Positions 1 to 8,687 of a stretch of 64,000 nucleotides of DNA are shown here, piece by piece (the stretch's first letter is position 1; each line of letters starts with the position of its first letter). A model generated the notes under the pieces. The model was not told the DNA's origin, ran no database searches, and saw only the letters and a list, made by a program, of their open reading frames with translations. Origin of the DNA: Streptomyces pactum (GTDB lineage Bacteria; Actinomycetota; Actinomycetes; Streptomycetales; Streptomycetaceae). The stretch spans positions 1,674,001 through 1,738,000 of the forward strand of contig NZ_CP019724.1 of assembly GCF_002005225.1 (NCBI RefSeq), given 5' to 3'. The position numbers were made by a program, and so were the translations under genes.

Positions 1-292
1 CCCGTACGGTGTCCACGGACATGCCGATGACCAGCAGCAGGGTGCCCAGGACGATGAGACGGCCGGCGTCGGTCGCGGTGTCGACGGCGAACGCGTGGGC
101 GAAGACGGTCTGTTCGCGGCCGGTGAGCATGGTGACGGCGGTGGCCACCAGGCCGGCCACGCAGGCGGCGGCCGCCACGACGGCGACGATCCACTGGCGG
201 CGGCGGGGCAGCCAGGAGCCGGCGAGCAGGCCGACGACGGCGGCGCCGAGCAGGGCGATTTCGGGAAGGAGCGCGGTGAGGTTCTCGTTCAC
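1..292 (-). CDS. nuoN: NADH-quinone oxidoreductase subunit N (partial, C-terminus outside window)
   Basis: Only the first 97 codons are present; the gene runs off the left edge. NuoN is an antiporter-like proton-pumping membrane subunit of respiratory complex I. The visible part starts with MNENLTALLPEIALLGAA and contains three hydrophobic segments, as expected for the NuoN N-terminus. The GTG start at 292-290 overlaps the TGA of nuoM as GTGA, so translation is probably coupled. It is the last visible gene of an eight-gene operon (nuoA, X, H, J, K, L, M, N) that lacks the redox subunits. Identity rests on position after nuoM and the hydrophobic pattern. Confidence 0.85.
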   Translation of the reverse strand, partial: MNENLTALLPEIALLGAAVVGLLAGSWLPRRRQWIVAVVAAAACVAGLVATAVTMLTGREQTVFAHAFAVDTATDAGRLIVLGTLLLVIGMSVDTVR

Positions 293-1794
293 CGTGCCAC
301 CAGCCCGGTCAGGGTGCGGCCCGCCGGTTCGATGACGTCCAGGAGCCAGCGGGGCAGGACGCCGATCACCAGCGCGGCCGCCAGCAGGGCGACGACGGGC
401 AGCGCCTCGTGGCGGTCGAGGTCCGCGATGCCGCCGGCCGGGACGCTCCCCGGCAGGCGCGGGACGCCGAGGAACATGCGCCGCAGCGCGGTCAGGAACA
501 GGGCGGCGGTGATGAGGATGCCGGTCAGGGCGATGGCGGTGGCCACCGTCCGCGAGGCCAGGGCACCCGTGAAGATCTGGAACTCGGCGATGAAGCCGGA
601 GAAGCCGGGGATGCCGAGACTGGCGAACGCGGCCACGGCCGTGACCGCCGCGAAGCGGGGAGCGTGGGCGGCCAGACCGGAGTAGGCGTCCATCGCGTAC
701 GTCCGCCCGCGGTCGTACAGCACGCCGCTGAGCAGGAACAGGGCGCCCGTGATCAGGCCGTGGCTGACCATCTGGGTGACCGCGCCGGTCACCGCCAGCG
801 CGCGGGCCTGCGTGTCGGTGCCGGCCAGCGTGCCGGCCGCGCCGACGGCCAGCACGACGTAGCCCATGTGGTTCACCGACGTGTAGGCGATCATGCGCTT
901 GAAGTCGGTCTGTGCCAGGGCGACCAGCGCGCCGTACACGACGGAGACGGCGCCGACGACGACGATGGCCAGGGCGTACCGGCGCCAGCTCCCCGGCAGC
1001 AGGGGCATGGCGATGCGGACGAACCCGTAGGTGCCCATCTTCAGCAGGACCCCGGCCAGGATCGCCGAGCCGGCGGCCGGGGCGTCGGTGTGGGCGGGCG
1101 GCAGCCAGGTGTGGAACGGCACGGTCGGCGTCTTGACCGCCAGGCCGACGCCGACGGCCAGCAGTACGAGACCGGCGTACGGGCCCCGGCCCGCCAGCGG
1201 GTCGGCACGCGCGAGGTCGGTGATGTCGAAGGTGTGCGGGTCGGCGGCCAGGTACAGGCCGATGAAGCCGAGCAGCAGGGCGAGGGAGCCGACGAAGGTG
1301 TAGAGGAAGAACTTCACCGCCGCCGCACGGGCGCGTTCACCGTGGCCCCAGCCCGCGATGACGAAGAACATGCCGACGATCGACAGGTCGAAGAAGACGA
1401 AGAACAGGATCAGGTCGAGCGCGACGAACAGGCCGATGGCGACGGTCTGCAGGAAGAGGAAGAGGCAGACGTAGGAGCGCACCCGCCGGGACTCGCGCAG
1501 TGAGTACCCGGCGACGGCCAGGAAGAGCAGACAGGTCAGGGCGACCAGGGGGAGGGACAGTCCGTCGACACCCACGTGGTAGCCGACCCCGGCGCTGGGG
1601 ATCCAGCGCGCCCGCTGCTCGTACTGCATCCCGCCGCCGGTGTCGAAACCCGCCCACAGCCCGATGACCAGGGCGAGGTCCGCGGCGGCGGTGGCGATCC
1701 AGATCCGGACCCACGCCCGGTCGGGGAGAGAGCGCGGCAGGAGCAGCAGGACCACGCACACCAGCAGCGGCAGGAAGGTGACGACGCTCAGCAC
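289..1794 (-). CDS. nuoM: NADH-quinone oxidoreductase subunit M
   Basis: A 501-residue polytopic membrane protein of the Mrp/NuoL-M-N antiporter family, which translocates protons in complex I. Family hallmarks are visible: KTPTVPFHTWLPPAHTDAP, then LLKMGTYGFVRI with the conserved pumping lysine, and AYTSVNHMGYV. Length agrees with other NuoM proteins. The GTG at 1794 is chosen because GGTGAGG lies just upstream, overlapping the end of nuoL; a much longer open frame continues upstream but is only the antisense-like shadow of nuoL. Its stop overlaps the nuoN start as GTGA. The operon around it has no Fe-S or NADH-binding subunits. Confidence 0.95.
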   Translation of the reverse strand: MLSVVTFLPLLVCVVLLLLPRSLPDRAWVRIWIATAAADLALVIGLWAGFDTGGGMQYEQRARWIPSAGVGYHVGVDGLSLPLVALTCLLFLAVAGYSLRESRRVRSYVCLFLFLQTVAIGLFVALDLILFFVFFDLSIVGMFFVIAGWGHGERARAAAVKFFLYTFVGSLALLLGFIGLYLAADPHTFDITDLARADPLAGRGPYAGLVLLAVGVGLAVKTPTVPFHTWLPPAHTDAPAAGSAILAGVLLKMGTYGFVRIAMPLLPGSWRRYALAIVVVGAVSVVYGALVALAQTDFKRMIAYTSVNHMGYVVLAVGAAGTLAGTDTQARALAVTGAVTQMVSHGLITGALFLLSGVLYDRGRTYAMDAYSGLAAHAPRFAAVTAVAAFASLGIPGFSGFIAEFQIFTGALASRTVATAIALTGILITAALFLTALRRMFLGVPRLPGSVPAGGIADLDRHEALPVVALLAAALVIGVLPRWLLDVIEPAGRTLTGLVAR

Positions 1795-1799
1795 AGGGG

Positions 1800-3923
1800 T
1801 TACCTCACCAACAGGATGATCAGGACGAGCACGGCGAAGCCGACGGCCGCCTGGGCGTAGTACTGGTGCAGCAGTCCGGTCTGCGGCCGGCGCGCTTGGC
1901 GGCCCAGGTTCCGGGCGCCCGCGGCGACCGCGCGGACGGCGCCGTCGACGGCGCCGTCGTCCAGGCGGCGGGCGAGCCCGGCGGCCGCCGTGCCGCCCCG
2001 GGCCACCTGGCGTACCGCGCCGTCCACGACCCGGTCGTCGAAGCGGGCCAGCGCCCGCGCCAGACCGAGTACGGGACGGACCACGAGGGCTCGCGCGGCC
2101 CGCTCCAGACACAGCCAGCCGCGCGCCCCTCGCAGGGCGGCGTGCGGTGCGGGTGCCGGGCGCCCGGACCGCCACCACGCCAGGGCGGCGGCGGCGAACA
2201 CGACACCGGCGGAGAGGCCCAGCTCCCACGGCTGGGGGGACGGTTCGTCCGGGGCGCCGACCAGTCGCTTCAGCCAGGCCGCGGGACCGGGCAGGGCCAG
2301 CACGCCCAGTCCGGCTGCCGCGAGGGTGAGGACGAGGAGCGGAGCGGGGGTCGTCCGGGCGGTGCGCCGGGTGCCGCGCCGCTCGGTGTCGTAGCCGGTC
2401 GGCGCGTCCTCGGGGCGGGACCGCACGTTCTCGGCGCCGGACCGCACGCCCTCGGGGCCCGTCCGCACACTTTCGACGCCGGACCGCCCGTCCTCGGGGC
2501 CCGTCCGCCCGTTCCCGGGACCGGCTCGCCCGTCCTCGAGGCCCGTCCGCCCGTTCCCGGCACGGGACCGCACACCCTCGAGGCCCGTCCGCCCGTTCCC
2601 GGCACGGGACCGCACGCCCCCAGGGCCCGTCCGCACGCCCTCGGGGCCCGTCCGCACCTTCTCGGGCAAGGGCCGGGTGACGTACCAGACGGCCTTGACG
2701 CTGTAGACGGCCGCCACGGCCGCGGCCGCCAGTCCCACGGCGTACAGGCCGGTGCTGTCGGCGCGGGCGGACGCGAGGACCTCGTCCTTGGCCGCCCACA
2801 GGGACAGCGGTGGCAGGCCCGCGAGCGTCAGCGCACCGACGACGAAGGCACCGCCGACCAGCCGGTACCGGCGGGCGGCCCCGCGCAGGGCAGGCAGTCG
2901 CTTGGTGCCCAGCGCCGTCAGCCAGGCCCCGGCGGCGAGGAAGAGAGCCGACTTGGTGGCGGCGTGCGCGACGAGTTGCGCGGTGCCCGCGGCGATGCCG
3001 CCGGTGCCGGCGGCGGTGACCATGAAACCGATCTGCGCGGAGGTGGAGGCCGCCAGCAACTGCTTGAGGTCGCTCTGGGCGACGGCGACGACGCCCAGAG
3101 CGAGGGCGGTGACGGCGCCGGTCCAGGCGACGAGCGGGCCGGCCCAACCGGTGGCGGCCAGCAGCGGGTTCAGGCGCAGCAGCAGGTAGGCGCCGGCGGC
3201 CACCATCGTCGCCGAGTGCAGCAGCGCCGAGACCGGACTGGGGCCCTGCATGGCCCGCGACAGCCAGAAGGAGAAGGGCAGTTGGGCCGACTTGCCCAGC
3301 GCGGCGGTCACCGCTCCGGCGGTGACCAGGTGCAGCGAGGGCCCGGAGGTGTGCGGCAGGGCGTCCAGGCTCAGTGAGCCGGCTCCGCCGGCCAGAGCGG
3401 CGCCGGCCGCGAGGTACAGCCCCAGGTCGGCGGTGCGGGTGGTCAGGAACGCGACGTCGGCCGCCCGCACCCGCTCGGGCTGCCGCCACCAGTGGCCGAT
3501 GAGCGCCCAACTGGCGGCGCCCATCACCTCCCAGGCCATCAGGAGCAGCGGCAGGGTGGTGGCCGTGACGGTGACCAGCATGGCCCCGGCGAAGACGAGC
3601 ATCAGCCCGAAGAACCGGCCGCGGTTCTCGTCCCTGCCGAACTCGCCCGCCGCGAAGACGAGTACCGCGGTCGTGACGGCGGCGACGGTGACCACCAGCA
3701 CCGCGGACAGGCCGTCCACCGCCAGTCCCGCGCGCATCCCGGCGAACAGCGGTGCGCCGGTCTCCGGCCGGGCCACGGCGACGGCGGCGGCCAGGCCGAG
3801 TGTGGCCACGGCCACCGCCCCGCCGAGCGCGGGAGCCGGCCGGTCGACGCGGGCGCCGGCCAGCGCGAGGGCCGTACCGGCGCCGAGCGGAAGGGCGACG
3901 AGCAGCCAGAGCAGCGCGCTCAT
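1800..3923 (-). CDS. nuoL: NADH-quinone oxidoreductase subunit L, with a repeat insertion
   Basis: A 707-residue NuoL family proton-translocating subunit. Conserved blocks are clear: WEVMGAASWALIGHWW (131-146), LGKSAQLPFSFWLSRAM (209-225), HSATMVAAGAYLL and VAHAATKSALFLAAG. The oddity is a hydrophilic insertion at residues 423-506 built of degenerate 6-8 residue units such as VRTGPEG, VRSRAGNG and RTGLEDG, placed after the last conserved core helices and before the C-terminal segment that carries the lateral helix and final anchor in canonical NuoL. The C-terminal hydrophobic end (about 685-706) is kept. ATG at 3923 overlaps the nuoK stop as ATGA. Confidence 0.93.
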   Translation of the reverse strand: MSALLWLLVALPLGAGTALALAGARVDRPAPALGGAVAVATLGLAAAVAVARPETGAPLFAGMRAGLAVDGLSAVLVVTVAAVTTAVLVFAAGEFGRDENRGRFFGLMLVFAGAMLVTVTATTLPLLLMAWEVMGAASWALIGHWWRQPERVRAADVAFLTTRTADLGLYLAAGAALAGGAGSLSLDALPHTSGPSLHLVTAGAVTAALGKSAQLPFSFWLSRAMQGPSPVSALLHSATMVAAGAYLLLRLNPLLAATGWAGPLVAWTGAVTALALGVVAVAQSDLKQLLAASTSAQIGFMVTAAGTGGIAAGTAQLVAHAATKSALFLAAGAWLTALGTKRLPALRGAARRYRLVGGAFVVGALTLAGLPPLSLWAAKDEVLASARADSTGLYAVGLAAAAVAAVYSVKAVWYVTRPLPEKVRTGPEGVRTGPGGVRSRAGNGRTGLEGVRSRAGNGRTGLEDGRAGPGNGRTGPEDGRSGVESVRTGPEGVRSGAENVRSRPEDAPTGYDTERRGTRRTARTTPAPLLVLTLAAAGLGVLALPGPAAWLKRLVGAPDEPSPQPWELGLSAGVVFAAAALAWWRSGRPAPAPHAALRGARGWLCLERAARALVVRPVLGLARALARFDDRVVDGAVRQVARGGTAAAGLARRLDDGAVDGAVRAVAAGARNLGRQARRPQTGLLHQYYAQAAVGFAVLVLIILLVR
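2406..2657 (-). repeat. Degenerate tandem repeat inside nuoL
   Basis: About twelve imperfect units of 18-24 bp encode repeated (V)R[TS][GR]xEG/NG motifs. On the plus strand they appear as alternating cgtccgcac/cgtccgccc and ccctcggggc/ccctcgaggc blocks. The reading frame is kept, so the insertion grew in multiples of three. The encoded stretch is highly charged with no predicted helix of membrane type, so it most likely forms a flexible loop outside the bilayer. Confidence 0.85.
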
Positions 3924-4225
3924 CCCTTCAACTCCTCCGCCATGTCGGTCATGTCGGCCTGGCGGGCGCGGTAGAGGGCGGTGGTGACGGCGAAGCCCAT
4001 GGCCATCTCGACCGCCATCGCCACCACCGCGGCCACGACGACCACCTGCCCGCTCGCCGAGGAGGGGGCGAGGAAGTGCCAGAAACCTGCCGCGGCGACG
4101 ATGATTCCGCCGATCATCAGCTCGATGCCCATCATGATCATGACGATGGACTGCTGGGACAGCGCGCCGAACAGGCCGGTGCAGAAGAGCCCCGCGGCCA
4201 GGACCAGGATCAGTTCGAACGTCAC
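3920..4225 (-). CDS. nuoK: NADH-quinone oxidoreductase subunit K
   Basis: A 101-residue membrane protein with three transmembrane helices, the standard NuoK size and shape. The conserved GLFGALSQQSIVMIMMGIEL (18-37) includes the TM2 glutamate needed for proton transfer in characterised complex I, and a second acidic residue sits in the third helix (AMAVEMAMG). GTG at 4225 overlaps the nuoJ stop as GTGA, and its own stop overlaps nuoL as ATGA, so it is translated within a tightly coupled chain. Confidence 0.95.
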   Translation of the reverse strand: MTFELILVLAAGLFCTGLFGALSQQSIVMIMMGIELMIGGIIVAAAGFWHFLAPSSASGQVVVVAAVVAMAVEMAMGFAVTTALYRARQADMTDMAEELKG

Positions 4226-4803
4226 CGGCCCACCCCTCCGCCGGCCGGGTCGTCGGCGGGCCGCCGGTCCAGGTCGTCGCCGAAGCGGTCGTAGCGCCCC
4301 CGGTGGGTGGCGAGTACGGTGGCGCCGACCATGGTGGCCAGCAGGACGAAGCCCAGCGTGACCATCGTCAGCATCTGATCGCCCATCAGTGACATGGCCA
4401 CCTGGAAGGTGGTGTCCGCGGGCCTGGCCGGTGCGCGTTCGGGCCACGGCGCCAGGAAGATCCCCGTGACGAGAGCGGCGAAGACGGCGCCGCTGACGAC
4501 CAGCGAGCCGCGCTTGTTGTGCAGCATCGACATCGGCATCAGCCCGGCCGGGTTCATCATGTACGCGATCATGAACACGGCCATGATCACCATCTCCATG
4601 ACCATCATCAGCACGATCACCACGCCGAGGTACGGCAGCCCCAGCACGGTCACCACACCGCCCACGCACACCAGGCAGGCCAGCAGCGCGAAGGTGACCC
4701 GGGCCATCGAGTCCAGGGTGAAGACCAGGACGCCGCCGGTCAGGGCGAGCACGCCGAGCACCACCAGCACGACGGTGTCCGTCGTCCCCAGGTCCGTTGG
4801 CAC
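4222..4803 (-). CDS. nuoJ: NADH-quinone oxidoreductase subunit J
   Basis: A 193-residue membrane protein with five predicted helices. The glycine-rich TM3 region LPYLGVVIVLMMVMEMVIMA matches the NuoJ pi-bulge helix zone that links the quinone site to the antiporter subunits. The C-terminal tail beyond residue 165 is hydrophilic (RGRYDRFGDDLDRRP). GTG at 4803 has GGAGG about 9 nt upstream. It is separated from nuoH by 26 nt, the only real gap in the operon, and its stop overlaps nuoK. Confidence 0.94.
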   Translation of the reverse strand: MPTDLGTTDTVVLVVLGVLALTGGVLVFTLDSMARVTFALLACLVCVGGVVTVLGLPYLGVVIVLMMVMEMVIMAVFMIAYMMNPAGLMPMSMLHNKRGSLVVSGAVFAALVTGIFLAPWPERAPARPADTTFQVAMSLMGDQMLTMVTLGFVLLATMVGATVLATHRGRYDRFGDDLDRRPADDPAGGGVGR

Positions 4804-4829
4804 GGCACGATCCCTCCTCTCCTGTTCGG

Positions 4830-5759
4830 TTATCGGTTCAGGACCACCACGGCCGGCACCAACGTCTGCGCGATGGTCAGCGGAACGAGCACCACCCAGG
4901 CCAGCTCCACGTACCGGTCGGCCCGCAGTACCGGCAACCGCCGCAGGACCACCACCAGTGCGGCCAGTACCAGCAGCGTCTTGACCAGCGACCAGGCCCA
5001 CGCCGGCAGCCACGGCCCGGCGCCCCCGCCGAGGAACAGCGGCACGGCCATCGCGGCGCCCGCGGCCAGCCACAGCCACCGCCCGGCCCGCAGCAGCAGC
5101 CGGTCCGCTCCGGAGGCCTCGCTCAGCACGCCGCCCGCGATGTCGCGGCCGGCCGGGTAGGCGAACGGCCCCAGGAAACTGAAGGCGAGGACCCCGGCCA
5201 GGTAGACGAGGAAGGCGACCGGCATCCACACCGCGTACCACAGGCCGTGCTGGGCGGCGGCGATGTCGCCGACCCGCAACGACTGGGCGCCGGTGGCGGT
5301 GGAGATGAGCGCGAACATCAGCGGCAGTTCGTAGGCCAGGCCCTGGGCGAGGAACCGGTAGCCGCCGACCAGGGACAGGGCCGCGTTCGGGCCCCAGCCG
5401 GCCAGCCACAGCCCCGCCCAGGTCAGCACCTCCATGGCGTTGAACCACACCAGCCCGACCGAGGGATCGGCGACCGCCACGTTCCCGAACGGGATCACCA
5501 GCGTGGACAGCACCGCGGCCCCCGGCACCGTGACGACGCCCGCCCGCCACAGCAGCCGGTCGGACGCGGGCAGCCGCCGGGGCTGTGCGAGCAGGGCGCG
5601 GGGCACGTCGAGCAACGGCCGTACCGCGGCGGACAGGGTGATAGGCCGTCCGGCGCCGCGCGCGTCCAGCACCGCGTGGCCGGCCACGGCGAGCACCGCG
5701 AGGGCGAGGAGCAGCGCGGGCGCGGCCAGTACGGTCCACCACGCGCCGGTCTCAAGCAC
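4830..5759 (-). CDS. nuoH: NADH-quinone oxidoreductase subunit H
   Basis: A 309-residue polytopic membrane protein. NuoH forms the quinone chamber of complex I and docks NuoB/D. The visible family signatures are GLVWFNAMEVLTWAGL, the quinone-site loop GGYRFLAQGLAYELPLMFAL and FLGPFAYPAGRDIAGGVLSE. Canonical NuoH usually has a stronger EGR/EYSG signature after the amphipathic helices; here the equivalent segment is divergent, consistent with a non-standard partner. The GTG start at 5759 overlaps the upstream gene's end by 8 nt. It is shorter than most NuoH proteins (about 330-450). Confidence 0.92.
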   Translation of the reverse strand: MLETGAWWTVLAAPALLLALAVLAVAGHAVLDARGAGRPITLSAAVRPLLDVPRALLAQPRRLPASDRLLWRAGVVTVPGAAVLSTLVIPFGNVAVADPSVGLVWFNAMEVLTWAGLWLAGWGPNAALSLVGGYRFLAQGLAYELPLMFALISTATGAQSLRVGDIAAAQHGLWYAVWMPVAFLVYLAGVLAFSFLGPFAYPAGRDIAGGVLSEASGADRLLLRAGRWLWLAAGAAMAVPLFLGGGAGPWLPAWAWSLVKTLLVLAALVVVLRRLPVLRADRYVELAWVVLVPLTIAQTLVPAVVVLNR

Positions 5760-7035
5760 GTACCGGCACCTCCCTTCGGCGGGCGGCGAGTTCGTCGAGG
5801 TCCGGGTCGAGACCGGCCACGACGAGGCGGGCCGCCGCCAGTTCGGTACCGGTCAGCAGCCGGGGAAGAAGCGCGACCAGCGCGGCCGACGGAGGGTGTC
5901 CGGTCCTCCAGTGACCGCGGGGGCTCTCCTGGACATCCGGTTCGAGAAGAGCCGGTTCGTCCAGACGCCCTACGTCACCGAGCAGGTCGGTGAGCCACTG
6001 CCGGTAGCGGTCGGTCACGTCGCCGCCGGCCCGGGCCGCCGGGCCGCTCACCCCGGCCTCCCGGGCCTCCTCGGTGTCCAGCCCGCCGATCCCGCGGGTC
6101 AGCCAGGCCAGCGTCCGCGACCTGCCGACCCGGTGCGCGAAGCGCGCCAGCCCGGGTGCGTACGCCGCGGTGGCGGCGCCGGCGAGCAGGTCGTCGCGCA
6201 GCCGCCGGGCCGCCACCGCCTCGGCGGGCAGGCCCGCCACCGCGAGCAGCCGGCCCAGGCTGTCCAGGTGCGCGGCCGACCGCCGCCGCGCCGCCTCCCC
6301 CACCGTCACCGCCTCCCCGGCCTCGGCGCGCAGCCACGGCTCCGCCCAGAACGGCGCGGGCGCCTCGCCGGCGTGGCCGGTGGGCTCCGCCAGGTCCGCC
6401 TGCTGGATCACGTCGCCCTGCAGCACCAGGCGTACCGTCAAACCGGAAGGCCAGTCGACGAGGAACGGCCCCAGCGGCACGTGCAGTCGGTCCAGCGTGA
6501 GGCCGTCACGGTCCTCACCCCGCTCGGCCATGGGCAGCCCGCCCGGCATCTCCATCCCGTCGTCGCCGTGGCCGCCTCCGCCGTCGCCGTGGCCGCCTCC
6601 GCCGTCGCCGTGGTCGACGCCGTGGGCGCCGTGCGCGTCGTGCCCGCCGCCGAGCGCCTGGTTCCGGCCGCCGTGCTCCTCGCGTCCGGCGCGCTCCGGG
6701 TGCCCGGCGTCGGCGTCGGCGTCGGTGGGTGAACCGAGCCGGGTCCGGCCGTCGTTCAGCGCCCTCTCCACGTCGTCGACGGTGGGCGCGTGCACGCGGG
6801 CGCGGGGGGCCGCCATGTCGCGCCAGAGCCGGGTCAGGGGTGGCCGGGTCTCCGGGCGGTCGGGGCCGGCGACGACGAGGAGATCGGCCTCGGCGGGGGT
6901 GGCGGCCACGGGCCAGTCCCGCAGCCGCAGGTGTCGTTCGGCGGCCAGCCGCACCGCCGTCCCGCCCGGCAGGGTGACCAGCAGCACGCGCGGCCGGGCG
7001 GCGACGGCGCGCAGGAGCCGTCGGGTCACGTCCAT
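5752..7035 (-). CDS. NuoB/NuoD-like protein without Fe-S cysteines (complex I accessory, unknown function)
   Basis: 427 residues lying between nuoA and nuoH, exactly where nuoB-C-D would be in a full operon. Residues 15-60 (RVLLVTLPGG, then PAEADLLVVAGP) recall the NuoB fold core, but none of the NuoB cluster N2 cysteines is present. A His/Gly-rich linker with HGDGGGG repeats spans 131-157. Residues 184-213 (HVPLGPFLVDWPSG, then VRLVLQGDVI) resemble the NuoD N-terminus where GPQHPxxHG would be, with the histidines lost. The rest is helical and NuoD-like only in arrangement. I infer a redox-silent scaffold that replaces the hydrophilic arm or caps NuoH. It overlaps nuoA by 10 nt and nuoH by 8 nt. 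Confidence 0.7.
   Translation of the reverse strand: MDVTRRLLRAVAARPRVLLVTLPGGTAVRLAAERHLRLRDWPVAATPAEADLLVVAGPDRPETRPPLTRLWRDMAAPRARVHAPTVDDVERALNDGRTRLGSPTDADADAGHPERAGREEHGGRNQALGGGHDAHGAHGVDHGDGGGGHGDGGGGHGDDGMEMPGGLPMAERGEDRDGLTLDRLHVPLGPFLVDWPSGLTVRLVLQGDVIQQADLAEPTGHAGEAPAPFWAEPWLRAEAGEAVTVGEAARRRSAAHLDSLGRLLAVAGLPAEAVAARRLRDDLLAGAATAAYAPGLARFAHRVGRSRTLAWLTRGIGGLDTEEAREAGVSGPAARAGGDVTDRYRQWLTDLLGDVGRLDEPALLEPDVQESPRGHWRTGHPPSAALVALLPRLLTGTELAAARLVVAGLDPDLDELAARRREVPVRA
6565..6645 (-). repeat. His/Gly-rich short repeat in the NuoB/D-like gene
   Basis: In-frame repeats encode GHDAHGAHGVDHG and HGDGGGG. The two HGDGGGG units are near-perfect 21-bp DNA duplicates. Clustered histidines and aspartates suggest a metal-binding or flexible linker between the NuoB-like and NuoD-like halves; this is inference from composition only. 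Confidence 0.7.
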
Positions 7036-7376
7036 CGCAGCGCACCCTCCCGCCACGCGTGGACGACCCCGGCGAGCAGCACCGCGAGGAAGACGAACAT
7101 CTCGATCACCGCGCCGACGCCCACGGCGGAGATGACGCGCGTCCACGGGTACATGAAGACCATCTCCATGTCGAAGGCCAGGAACAGCATCGTCACCGTG
7201 TACCAGCGCACGTGGAACCGGCTCACCGCGTGCTCCGCCGGCTCCCACCCGGAGCCGAACGGCGCGGCCGCCACCGGTTGTGAAGCCAGGCGCATCGCCC
7301 GGGCCGCGCCGTATACCCCGAGCACCGCGATCGCCGCCACGCCGAGCAGGGAGAGCGCCGCCGTGGTCCCGCTCAT
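7026..7376 (-). CDS. nuoA: NADH-quinone oxidoreductase subunit A
   Basis: A 116-residue protein with three transmembrane helices. NuoA contacts NuoH, J and K near the quinone channel. The conserved core is present: PFGSGWEP (here with no cysteine, where many NuoA have YECG), then FHVRWYTVTMLFLAFDMEMV, then FMYPW. The ATG at 7376 is preferred because GGGAAGGA lies 10 nt upstream; a GTG at 7385 is the alternative and would add three residues. It is the first gene of the operon and overlaps the next gene by 10 nt. Confidence 0.93.
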   Translation of the reverse strand: MSGTTAALSLLGVAAIAVLGVYGAARAMRLASQPVAAAPFGSGWEPAEHAVSRFHVRWYTVTMLFLAFDMEMVFMYPWTRVISAVGVGAVIEMFVFLAVLLAGVVHAWREGALRWT

Positions 7377-7622
7377 CCGCTCCACGTCCTTCCCTCGGCA
7401 GTCGAGCCCGCCGCGTACCCCGTGGGGGGACGTGCCATTCCGGGCGGGTCCGGCGCACGGGCCCGATCAGCATCGCGCAGCGGACCCCGGGGCGAGCGCG
7501 GCGTGCCCGTGCCCGCCGCGCAACTGGTTCTTCCGAGTGAGCCGGGCCGGCGAATCCGGGCCCCGGGAACAGCCTGATCACCTCCGCTGTTGCCCCTCGT
7601 GTGCGGGAACGGAGGCGGATCG

Positions 7623-8687
7623 GTGCACGGTGAATACAAGATCCCCGGCGGCAAGCTGGTCGTCGTGGACGTGGAGGCCGAGGGCGGTGTGCTGCGGCAC
7701 GTGCGCGTGGCGGGCGACTTCTTCCTGGAACCGGACGAGGCGCTGGACGCCGTGAACCGCGCGCTGGAGGGCGCCCCGGCGGACACCGACGCGGCCGGAC
7801 TCGCCGCCCGGATCGACGCGGCACTGCCCGAGGGGACCGTGATGTACGGGCTGACCTCGGAGGGGGTCGGCATCGCCGTGCGCCGGGCCCTCGCCCACGC
7901 CACGGACTGGACCGACTACGACTGGCAGCTCGTCCACGAGGGTCCGCAGCCGCCGGCCCTGCACATGGCGCTGGACGAGGTGCTGACGGCCGAGGTCGCC
8001 GCCGGCCGGCGTCCGCCGACGCTGCGGGTGTGGGAGTGGGGCGCCCCGGCGGTGATCATCGGCAGTTTCCAGTCGCTGCGCAACGAGGTGGACGCCGAGG
8101 GCGCCGCCCGCCACGGCATCGAGGTGGTGCGCCGGATCTCCGGCGGCGGCGCCATGTTCGTCGAGCCCGGCAACACGATCACCTACTCGCTGTCCGTGCC
8201 GGAGGCACTGGTGCAGGGGCTCTCCTTCCAGGACAGCTACGCCTACCTCGACGACTGGGTGCTCGGCGCGCTCGGCGAGATGGGCGTCCGCGCCTGGTAC
8301 CAGCCGCTCAACGACATCACCACCGACCAGGGCAAGATCGCGGGCGCCGCCCAGAAGCGCGTCGTGGGGCCGGGCGGCGGTCCCGGCGCCGTGCTGCACC
8401 ACGTGACCATGTCGTACGACATCGACGCCGGCAAGATGCTGGAAGTGCTGCGCATCGGGCGGGAGAAGATGTCCGACAAGGGCGTCAAGAGCGCGGGGAA
8501 GCGGGTGGACCCGCTGCGCCGGCAGACCGGCCTGGCGCGGGAGGCCGTCATCGAGCGGATGATCGAGTCGTTCGGCGGCCGGTACGGGCTCGCCCGGGGG
8601 AAGGTGACCGACGAGGAGCTGGCGCGGGCGCGGGAGCTGGCCCGCAGCAAGTTCGGCTCCGACCACTGGACGGCGCGAGTCCCCTGA
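7623..8687 (+). CDS. lplA: Lipoate-protein ligase A family protein
   Basis: 354 residues. LplA activates lipoate with ATP and attaches it to lysines of 2-oxoacid dehydrogenase E2 and glycine-cleavage H proteins. Here the small accessory domain (residues 1-95, with IPGGKLVVVDVEAEGG) comes first and the catalytic BPL/LPL domain second, a circularly rearranged order. Catalytic features include RRISGGGAMFVEPGNTITYS (lipoyl-adenylate loop) and DQGKIAGAAQKR with the predicted catalytic lysine. GTG at 7623 is chosen because GGAGG ends 7 nt upstream. It is divergent from the nuo operon, sharing a 246-bp promoter region. Confidence 0.9.
   Translation: MHGEYKIPGGKLVVVDVEAEGGVLRHVRVAGDFFLEPDEALDAVNRALEGAPADTDAAGLAARIDAALPEGTVMYGLTSEGVGIAVRRALAHATDWTDYDWQLVHEGPQPPALHMALDEVLTAEVAAGRRPPTLRVWEWGAPAVIIGSFQSLRNEVDAEGAARHGIEVVRRISGGGAMFVEPGNTITYSLSVPEALVQGLSFQDSYAYLDDWVLGALGEMGVRAWYQPLNDITTDQGKIAGAAQKRVVGPGGGPGAVLHHVTMSYDIDAGKMLEVLRIGREKMSDKGVKSAGKRVDPLRRQTGLAREAVIERMIESFGGRYGLARGKVTDEELARARELARSKFGSDHWTARVP

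What the first reader, a model, noticed from the sequence alone, without database searches (positions are those of the whole stretch)
1..7376. Complex I-like operon lacking all redox subunits
Eight genes nuoA-X-H-J-K-L-M-N are coupled by stop-start overlaps, but there is no NuoB, C, D, E, F, G or I. The proton-pumping membrane arm is thus kept with a single unusual partner X in the place of B-C-D. It cannot oxidise NADH alone; it may use another electron donor, couple to a different dehydrogenase, or run as an ion-transport machine. A functional non-redox complex of this kind would be new to me.
Basis: partly seen in the sequence, partly recalled or inferred. Interest (0 to 1): 0.8.

Follow-up and report, generated by a model that had tools for sequence, protein, structure and literature searches.

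The report
Redox-dead complex I linked to copper
A bacterial operon keeps most of the proton machinery of respiratory complex I but has replaced the electron-carrying part with a cofactor-less remnant; many of its relatives sit beside copper genes and share a unique set of methionines in the membrane, so it may be a proton-driven copper transporter rather than a respiratory enzyme.

Summary
In detail: nuoA-X-H-J-K-L-M-N runs leftwards from 7385 past the window edge with no nuoB/C/D/E/F/G/I beside it; the genome's two NuoB genes lie 2 Mb away. X is a fused NuoB-NuoD remnant (profiles, AlphaFold model and fold matches agree) without conserved cysteines and without the aligned quinone-site His motif, so neither N2 cluster nor usual quinone chemistry is expected. 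The same gene order recurs in Actinomycetota, Chloroflexota, Gemmatimonadota-labelled MAGs and an alphaproteobacterium. Proton-channel residues are kept in L and M; NuoN keeps its lysines but lost one conserved Glu. Eighteen group-specific methionines lie in A, J and K (none in H or L, two in M, two in N).

The surroundings point to copper: a YHS gene directly precedes nuoA in 25 of 30 loci outside the Streptomyces type; DUF305 and CsoR lie near more often than expected; four of eight plasmid copies read lie among copper genes; a CsoR-type operator precedes nuoA in the window (one mismatch) and, exact, in three plasmid copies.

Best explanation: a proton-motive-force-driven Cu(I) transporter, probably an exporter, built from complex I. 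The copper link is strong; substrate, coupling and direction are inferred. My searches found no earlier description.

The parts
7416..7430 (.). CsoR-type copper operator, one mismatch (TCCCCCCACGGGGTA on the nuoA strand), 30 bp before nuoA
   Evidence: pattern TACCCCNNNGGGGTA within 1 mismatch has 13 places in the genome, 3 for the reversed pattern; other places include copZA-like genes, csoR and a DUF305/His-rich pair; consensus from PMC3902906
7026..7385 (-). nuoA, with group-specific M73, M75, M78 beside kept D72/E74, and H52, H58
   Evidence: Pfam Oxidored_q4 4.7e-26; columns in 44 X-type vs 18 canonical
5752..7035 (-). gene X: 427-aa cofactor-less NuoB-NuoD fusion with a His/Gly/Asp-rich linker
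6724..7035 (-). NuoB-like part of X (residues 1-104)
6526..6723 (-). low-confidence His/Gly/Asp-rich linker of X (residues 105-170)
   Evidence: block pLDDT about 40-72; composition
5782..6525 (-). NuoD-like part of X (residues 171-418)
4830..5759 (-). nuoH
   Evidence: Pfam NADHdh 1.7e-39
4222..4803 (-). nuoJ, with 11 group-specific methionines plus E70 and H95
4519..4611 (-). nuoJ residues 65-95: methionine-rich stretch LMMVMEMVIMAVFMIAYMMNPAGLMPMSMLH
   Evidence: columns 66, 67, 71, 74, 78, 82, 83, 91, 93 are 97-100% Met in X-type, and conserved as other residues in canonical NuoJ; M67 aligns with residue 59 of E. coli NuoJ
3920..4225 (-). nuoK, with M29, M31, M70, M74 beside kept E35 and E73
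1800..3923 (-). nuoL; E132, K211, H236, K324, K379 kept
   Evidence: Pfam Proton_antipo_M 4.8e-47; E132, K211, H236, K324, K379 in 35 of 35
289..1803 (-). nuoM (true start probably a little upstream); D139, K224, K255, H312, H348, E407 kept
   Evidence: start
1..292 (-). start of nuoN; the gene ends outside the window at genome 1672868
   Evidence: residues

Best explanation
The operon encodes a non-redox relative of complex I that moves copper. X (NuoB fused to NuoD, without iron-sulphur ligands or the aligned quinone His) caps NuoH/A/J/K as a scaffold and metal-delivery or gating dock. Cu(I) would be handed over by a small YHS protein in most non-Streptomyces lineages, or by the His-rich linker of X in the Streptomyces type. 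It would pass along group-specific methionines in NuoA, NuoJ and NuoK, where complex I has its E-channel. The kept proton channels (L and M; NuoN is altered) would supply the driving force by proton exchange, as Mrp does with sodium. Where the CsoR operator is present, copper would release the promoter, so the likely direction is export. Shown: gene content, descent of X, loss of redox residues, kept L/M channel residues, localised methionine gain, copper neighbourhoods. Inferred: assembly into one complex, Cu(I) as substrate, coupling to protons, direction.
For: X is NuoB+NuoD. No conserved Cys (at most 18 of 98 in a column), GPQHPSTHG replaced. Gene order kept, no separate redox-subunit gene in the X loci. 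X-type NuoM is one clade (97/98). Channel residues kept in L (35 of 35) and M (33 of 33, with E to D at 139; E407 in 32). Met is 18 of 90 gained columns in A/J/K against 2 of 190 in H/L/M, Fisher 3.9e-8, a grouping made after seeing the data. The genome's own nuo2 has none of the 18. Six plasmid copies have 17-18 of 18. YHS: all 24 motif hits in 49 loci (772 kb) are on the nuoA strand within 210 bp upstream of it; 0 in 295 kb of canonical nuo loci. DUF305 within 10 kb in 5 of 24 genomes (0.17 expected), CsoR in 3 (0.19 expected). Plasmid neighbourhoods with heavy-metal ATPase, HMA, metal-sensitive regulator, multicopper oxidase or DUF305 genes. CsoR-type operators.
Against: No experiment. NuoN has lost a Glu conserved in the 4 canonical sequences at hand (Leu, Val or Met in 31 of 31), so its channel is not fully intact. 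HMA genes are not enriched near X (1 of 24 genomes, 0.36 expected). In 17 of 24 genomes, the window's own included, none of the three tested families lies within 10 kb; the families were chosen after reading neighbourhoods, and related genomes are not independent. The window's operator has its mismatch inside the TAC half-site; swaps at both ends of that repeat abolished CsoR binding (PMC3902906). The scan found no palindromic site before nuoA in the other Streptomyces loci nor in 4 of 8 plasmids. In both Pseudonocardia plasmids the site is nearer to the regulator gene than to nuoA. Two full plasmid copies have no annotated copper gene within 14 kb. Methionines could serve packing or flexibility. 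The complex was not modelled; closeness to the E-channel rests on alignment. Direction is a guess from regulation.
Confidence: 0.52

Rival explanations
1. The complex is a copper importer or supplier: it brings copper in, or shuttles it, for cuproenzymes such as multicopper oxidases and terminal oxidases.
For: Same methionines and copper neighbours; a multicopper oxidase lies near several copies (by eye; annotated) and ctaD near one plasmid copy.
Against: Company with heavy-metal ATPase, HMA and metal-sensitive regulator genes and a CsoR-type operator fits copper excess, because CsoR does not bind its operator when Cu(I) is bound (PMC3902906, passages).
Confidence: 0.17
2. It is a copper-sensing proton or monovalent-cation machine: copper binding to YHS, X or the methionines gates proton or Na+/K+ flow, protecting pH or membrane potential under copper stress, without moving copper.
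For: The plan resembles Mrp; a YHS domain acts as a probable copper-sensor module in an adenylyl cyclase (PMC4626032, abstract); L and M channel residues kept.
Against: Eighteen group-specific methionines over three membrane subunits are more than a sensor needs.
Confidence: 0.17
3. It is still a respiratory enzyme with an unknown electron donor or a separately encoded dehydrogenase that docks on X.
For: X keeps the NuoB and NuoD folds; the genome has two other nuo clusters whose redox subunits might be shared.
Against: No conserved Cys in X, aligned quinone-site His motif replaced; no redox subunit gene found in the X loci.
Confidence: 0.08
4. It is a decaying remnant of complex I without function.
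For: Patchy in Streptomyces (17 of 121 genomes), one copy with an in-frame stop (G361), one plasmid with only nuoA and a piece of X.
Against: Gene order conserved over distant taxa, L and M channel residues and new methionines near-invariant, more than 1,000 homologous proteins.
Confidence: 0.03

Closest known systems
Respiratory complex I (NDH-1, Nuo)
   Same: Subunits A, H, J, K, L, M, N in the same order; NuoB and NuoD folds inside X; channel residues of L and M and the carboxylates D72/E74 of A and E35/E73 of K kept.
   Different: No C, E, F, G, I; X without conserved cysteines and aligned quinone His; the position of E. coli NuoJ residue 59 is Met instead of Tyr; NuoN lost a conserved Glu; methionines unique to the group.
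Mrp cation/proton antiporters
   Same: Non-redox machine with complex I membrane subunits, thought to exchange a cation for protons (PMC7419157, abstract and one section read). In a MAFFT alignment the conserved MbhD-domain Glu falls on X-type NuoJ M67.
   Different: Here there are NuoA, NuoH and a NuoB-NuoD cap, methionines instead of the Mrp His ligands, and copper rather than Na+/K+ neighbours.
Complex I forms without the N-module (Fpo-like, chloroplast and cyanobacterial NDH-1)
   Same: Lack the NADH module (recalled); X scores best against NdhH chains and, by number of members, the FpoD model.
   Different: Those keep B, C, D and I with Fe-S clusters (recalled); this keeps none.
CsoR-copZ-copA copper efflux systems
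   Same: Shared neighbourhoods and operator sequence.
   Different: P-type ATPases use ATP; this would use proton motive force.

Membership tests
Complex I (NDH-1) | membrane subunits A, H, J, K, L, M, N | tested here: met
Complex I (NDH-1) | NuoB with N2 cluster cysteines | tested here: not met
   NuoB-like domain present, but no column of 98 X sequences has more than 18 Cys
Complex I (NDH-1) | NuoD with the quinone-site His/Tyr | tested here: not met
   GPQHPSTHG replaced by GPFxxxxPxG and the segment after it only partly present in X; which residues contact quinone is recalled
Complex I (NDH-1) | NuoC, I and an electron-input module beside the cluster | tested here: not met
   no redox-subunit gene in X loci, nor in the window and 20 kb around its left edge
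Mrp antiporter | MrpA-G gene set with an MbhD-domain MrpA | tested here: not met
   gene set is A-X-H-J-K-L-M-N; PF13244 has no match in the window's genome
Mrp antiporter | cation/proton exchange | not testable with these tools
   needs vesicle assays
CsoR copper regulon | CsoR operator in the promoter | tested here: inconclusive
   1 mismatch in the window, in L077 and L082 and L164; exact in L162, L165, L166; not found in most other loci
Copper transporter | copper-dependent expression and copper flux | not tested
   no experiment or expression data at hand

The most novel reading that the evidence does not exclude
A new class of copper pump: complex I stripped of electron transfer and rebuilt as a proton-motive-force-driven Cu(I) exporter, with a methionine-lined path through NuoA/J/K where complex I couples quinone chemistry to proton pumping. 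To my knowledge it would be the first complex-I-type machine with a transition metal as substrate.
Probability: 0.43. Interest if true: 0.95.

Novelty: new variant of a known kind. Interest (0 to 1): 0.85.

Why it matters
How complex I couples quinone chemistry to proton pumping over a long distance is a central open question. A natural relative that keeps the E-channel region and most channel residues but swaps electron transfer for (probably) a metal ion would let the coupling be tested without redox chemistry. It would also add a new kind of machine to bacterial copper handling, and explain genes annotated as NADH-quinone oxidoreductase subunits that cannot be that.

Tried and rejected

Rows dropped before counts: L044 (listed with the same match and length as L043), L033 and L052 (same contigs as L092 and L095), L040 (near-copy of L045) and L090 (broken X), and sequences under the length limits there; L044, L055 and L056 from the YHS scan. 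L008, L013 and other short loci were not in the YHS scan. The 25 of 30 for YHS is 23 distinct loci by motif plus L029 and L036 read by eye; without: L048, L051, L052, L054, L094. The 49 loci include same-contig pairs (L033/L092, L052/L095, L048/L096). Of the 17 Streptomyces genomes one (G331) has only a weak 59-residue match. The canonical set is Actinomycetes only (17-18 loci; 4 for NuoN).
Full report
What is there. The window lies in an 8.55-Mb chromosome of the genus Streptomyces, judged by its closest X homologues. Eight genes read leftwards: nuoA, X, nuoH, nuoJ, nuoK, nuoL, nuoM, nuoN. DNA fetched left of the window completes nuoN (474 aa). Left of it I see by eye a small membrane protein, a DUF1330-like, a DM13-like, a gamma-glutamyltransferase-like and an inositol-monophosphatase-like gene. 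The genome's own NuoB, C, D, E, F, G and I find no tblastn hit at E 0.001 in the window or in the 20 kb around its left edge. The two NuoB matches in the genome lie about 2 Mb away.

A conserved system. Named loci carry titles of Chloroflexi, Anaerolinea, Dehalococcoidia, Acidimicrobiia and other Actinomycetota, Gemmatimonadales/-detes, one Cyanobacteria MAG and Acuticoccus (the last an alphaproteobacterium, recalled). As far as the contigs reach, the order A-X-H-J-K-L-M-N recurs; a separate nuoB and nuoD appear only in the off-target L056, and elsewhere the nuoB and nuoD queries hit inside X itself. In Streptomyces it is patchy: 17 of 121 genomes, one of them by a weak partial match. It is also on plasmids: 14 records by tblastn. 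In a NuoM tree of 49 rows the 32 X-type rows are one clade (97/98) with a Streptomyces-type subclade (15 rows) and a second one (17 rows); nuo2 joins by a long branch. The Gemmatimonadota loci end before nuoM and are not in the tree.

What changed in the membrane. I compared columns conserved at 70% or more in X-type and at 20% or less in canonical sequences. NuoJ gains 11 methionines (n 39 vs 17), NuoA 3 (44 vs 18), NuoK 4 (38 vs 17), NuoH 0 (42 vs 17), NuoL 0 (35 vs 17), NuoM 2 (33 vs 17), NuoN 2 (31 vs only 4). Met is 18 of 90 gained columns in A/J/K and 2 of 190 in H/L/M (Fisher 3.9e-8; grouped after seeing the data, and sequences are related). The canonical set is all Actinomycetes, a limit. 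The genome's nuo2 has none of the 18; six plasmid copies have 17 or 18. They flank kept carboxylates: NuoA D72-M73-E74-M75, NuoK E35 and E73. NuoJ M67 replaces a Tyr invariant in 17 canonical sequences and aligns with residue 59 of E. coli NuoJ. That these positions line the E-channel is established knowledge applied by alignment; I did not model the complex. In a MAFFT alignment the MbhD-domain Glu of Mrp-type proteins falls on the same position; in the Mrp structure the homologous acid is placed at the proposed cation/proton coupling site (PMC7419157, section 8; that the two acids are the same is my inference). NuoL E132, K211, H236, K324, K379 are in 35 of 35; NuoM K224, K255, H312, H348 in 33 of 33, E407 in 32, D instead of E at 139 in 33. 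NuoN keeps K157 and K244 in 31 of 31 and K214 in 29, but a Glu present in 4 of 4 canonical sequences is Leu, Val or Met in all 31.

The copper link. (1) YHS: a six-frame motif scan of 49 X loci (772 kb) gives 24 hits, all on the nuoA strand within 210 bp upstream of it; canonical nuo loci (295 kb) and the window give none. With two read by eye, 25 of 30 distinct loci outside the Streptomyces type have it. A YHS domain was reported as a probable copper-sensor module (PMC4626032, abstract). (2) X without the GPYGQGG motif (Streptomyces type) has a longer, His-richer linker (median 7 His, range 0-20, n 30) than the others (median 0, range 0-6, n 68). The Pseudonocardia plasmid X holds a long run of HGE repeats and the Arthrobacter one MDHGSMDHGGMDM. 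(3) In 24 genomes with X, DUF305 lies within 10 kb in 5 (0.17 expected), CsoR in 3 (0.19), HMA in 1 (0.36, not significant), any of the three in 7 (0.71; Poisson 1e-5). The families were picked after reading neighbourhoods and relatedness is ignored. In 17 of 24, the window's genome included, none is that near. (4) Of 8 plasmids read, 4 place the cluster among copper-type genes, as annotated: Arthrobacter FB24 (sulfocyanin-like copper protein, DUF305, multicopper oxidase directly upstream), Curtobacterium (metal-sensitive regulator, HMA protein, heavy-metal P-type ATPase, then nuoA after 81 bp), two Pseudonocardia (ATPase, HMA protein and regulator divergent from nuoA; DUF305 after nuoN). The others: a CopY/BlaI-type regulator with an incomplete cluster, two full clusters without annotated copper genes within 14 kb, one remnant. 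(5) Operator TACCCC-N3-GGGGTA, after the S. lividans CsoR consensus (PMC3902906, passages): 13 places within 1 mismatch in the genome, 3 for the reversed pattern. By my reading they are two copZ-copA pairs (three sites), a DUF305/His-rich pair, csoR, a copZ-like gene, one near a YcnI-like gene, the window's nuoA (7416-7430), and five others that I take as chance. The related L077 and L082 have TGCCCCCCAGGGGTA there. The exact site lies 38 bp before nuoA in Curtobacterium; in both Pseudonocardia it lies between regulator and nuoA, nearer the regulator; Streptomyces NBC_00080 has 1 mismatch; 4 plasmids have none. L033/L092 has a CsoR gene (PF02583) divergent from the cluster with ATACCCC-ATA-GGGGTAG upstream. 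The scan found no palindromic site in the other Streptomyces loci.

How it most likely works. X should not pass electrons. The kept channel residues need another partner, and the clearest new conserved feature of the membrane arm is a run of soft-metal ligands at the coupling region, in clusters tied to copper genes. I therefore favour proton-driven Cu(I) transport, probably export because of the CsoR and ATPase company. Shown: composition, descent of X, losses, methionine gain, neighbourhoods. Inferred: assembly, substrate, coupling, direction.

Known or new. My paper searches (listed under Tried and rejected) found no account of this complex. By descent it belongs to the complex I superfamily; it fails the redox tests for complex I and the gene-set test for Mrp. 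I rate it a new variant of a known kind, with a fair chance that it proves a new class of metal transporter.

Noticed in passing
window 1800-3923 (nuoL), about residues 420-500: nuoL carries an imperfect repeat (RTGPEGVRSRAGNGRTGLEG-like) late in the protein.
   Followed up: no
L024 (G000:C1:3685000-3699000): Second nuo cluster of the genome, with a NuoB-type ORF of 363 aa and a NuoA with Ala and Asp aligned to the Asp and Glu of the E-channel pair.
   Followed up: partly
X-type NuoN, position 133 (31 loci): A Glu present in 4 of 4 canonical NuoN is Leu, Val or Met in all 31 X-type NuoN, next to the altered coupling region; its meaning is open.
   Followed up: partly
L165, L166 (Pseudonocardia plasmids), X gene: The linker of X is expanded into a long run of His-Gly-Glu repeats; the annotation shows only the end of the gene.
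   Followed up: partly
L148 (G000:C1:3835500-3841000): Exact CsoR-type operator between a DUF305 protein and a very His-rich membrane protein: a likely further copper-regulon member.
   Followed up: partly
L154 (G000:C1:1162500-1166000): A copZ-like HMA gene next to an RND/MmpL-like transporter with a one-mismatch CsoR-type operator.
   Followed up: no
L003 6632-7369: DM13-like secreted protein gene a little left of nuoN, same strand.
   Followed up: no
window 7590-8687: Gene divergent from nuoA resembling lipoate-protein ligase; conserved link not tested.
   Followed up: no
G361:C1:9210559-9211376 (L070, L075, L090): A Streptomyces copy of X carries an in-frame stop, with only nuoA found beside it: loss of the cluster in progress.
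   Followed up: partly
L164 (Streptomyces sp. NBC_00080 plasmid): Remnant with nuoA and a piece of X, still preceded by a one-mismatch CsoR-type operator.
   Followed up: partly
L094 8371-8781 and L034 6151-6507: Cys-rich proteins that by eye resemble four-helix copper-storage proteins, near the cluster.
   Followed up: no
six Mycobacterium plasmid records: X-like proteins also on plasmids of Mycobacterium avium, M. intracellulare and M. paragordonae; not fetched.
   Followed up: no
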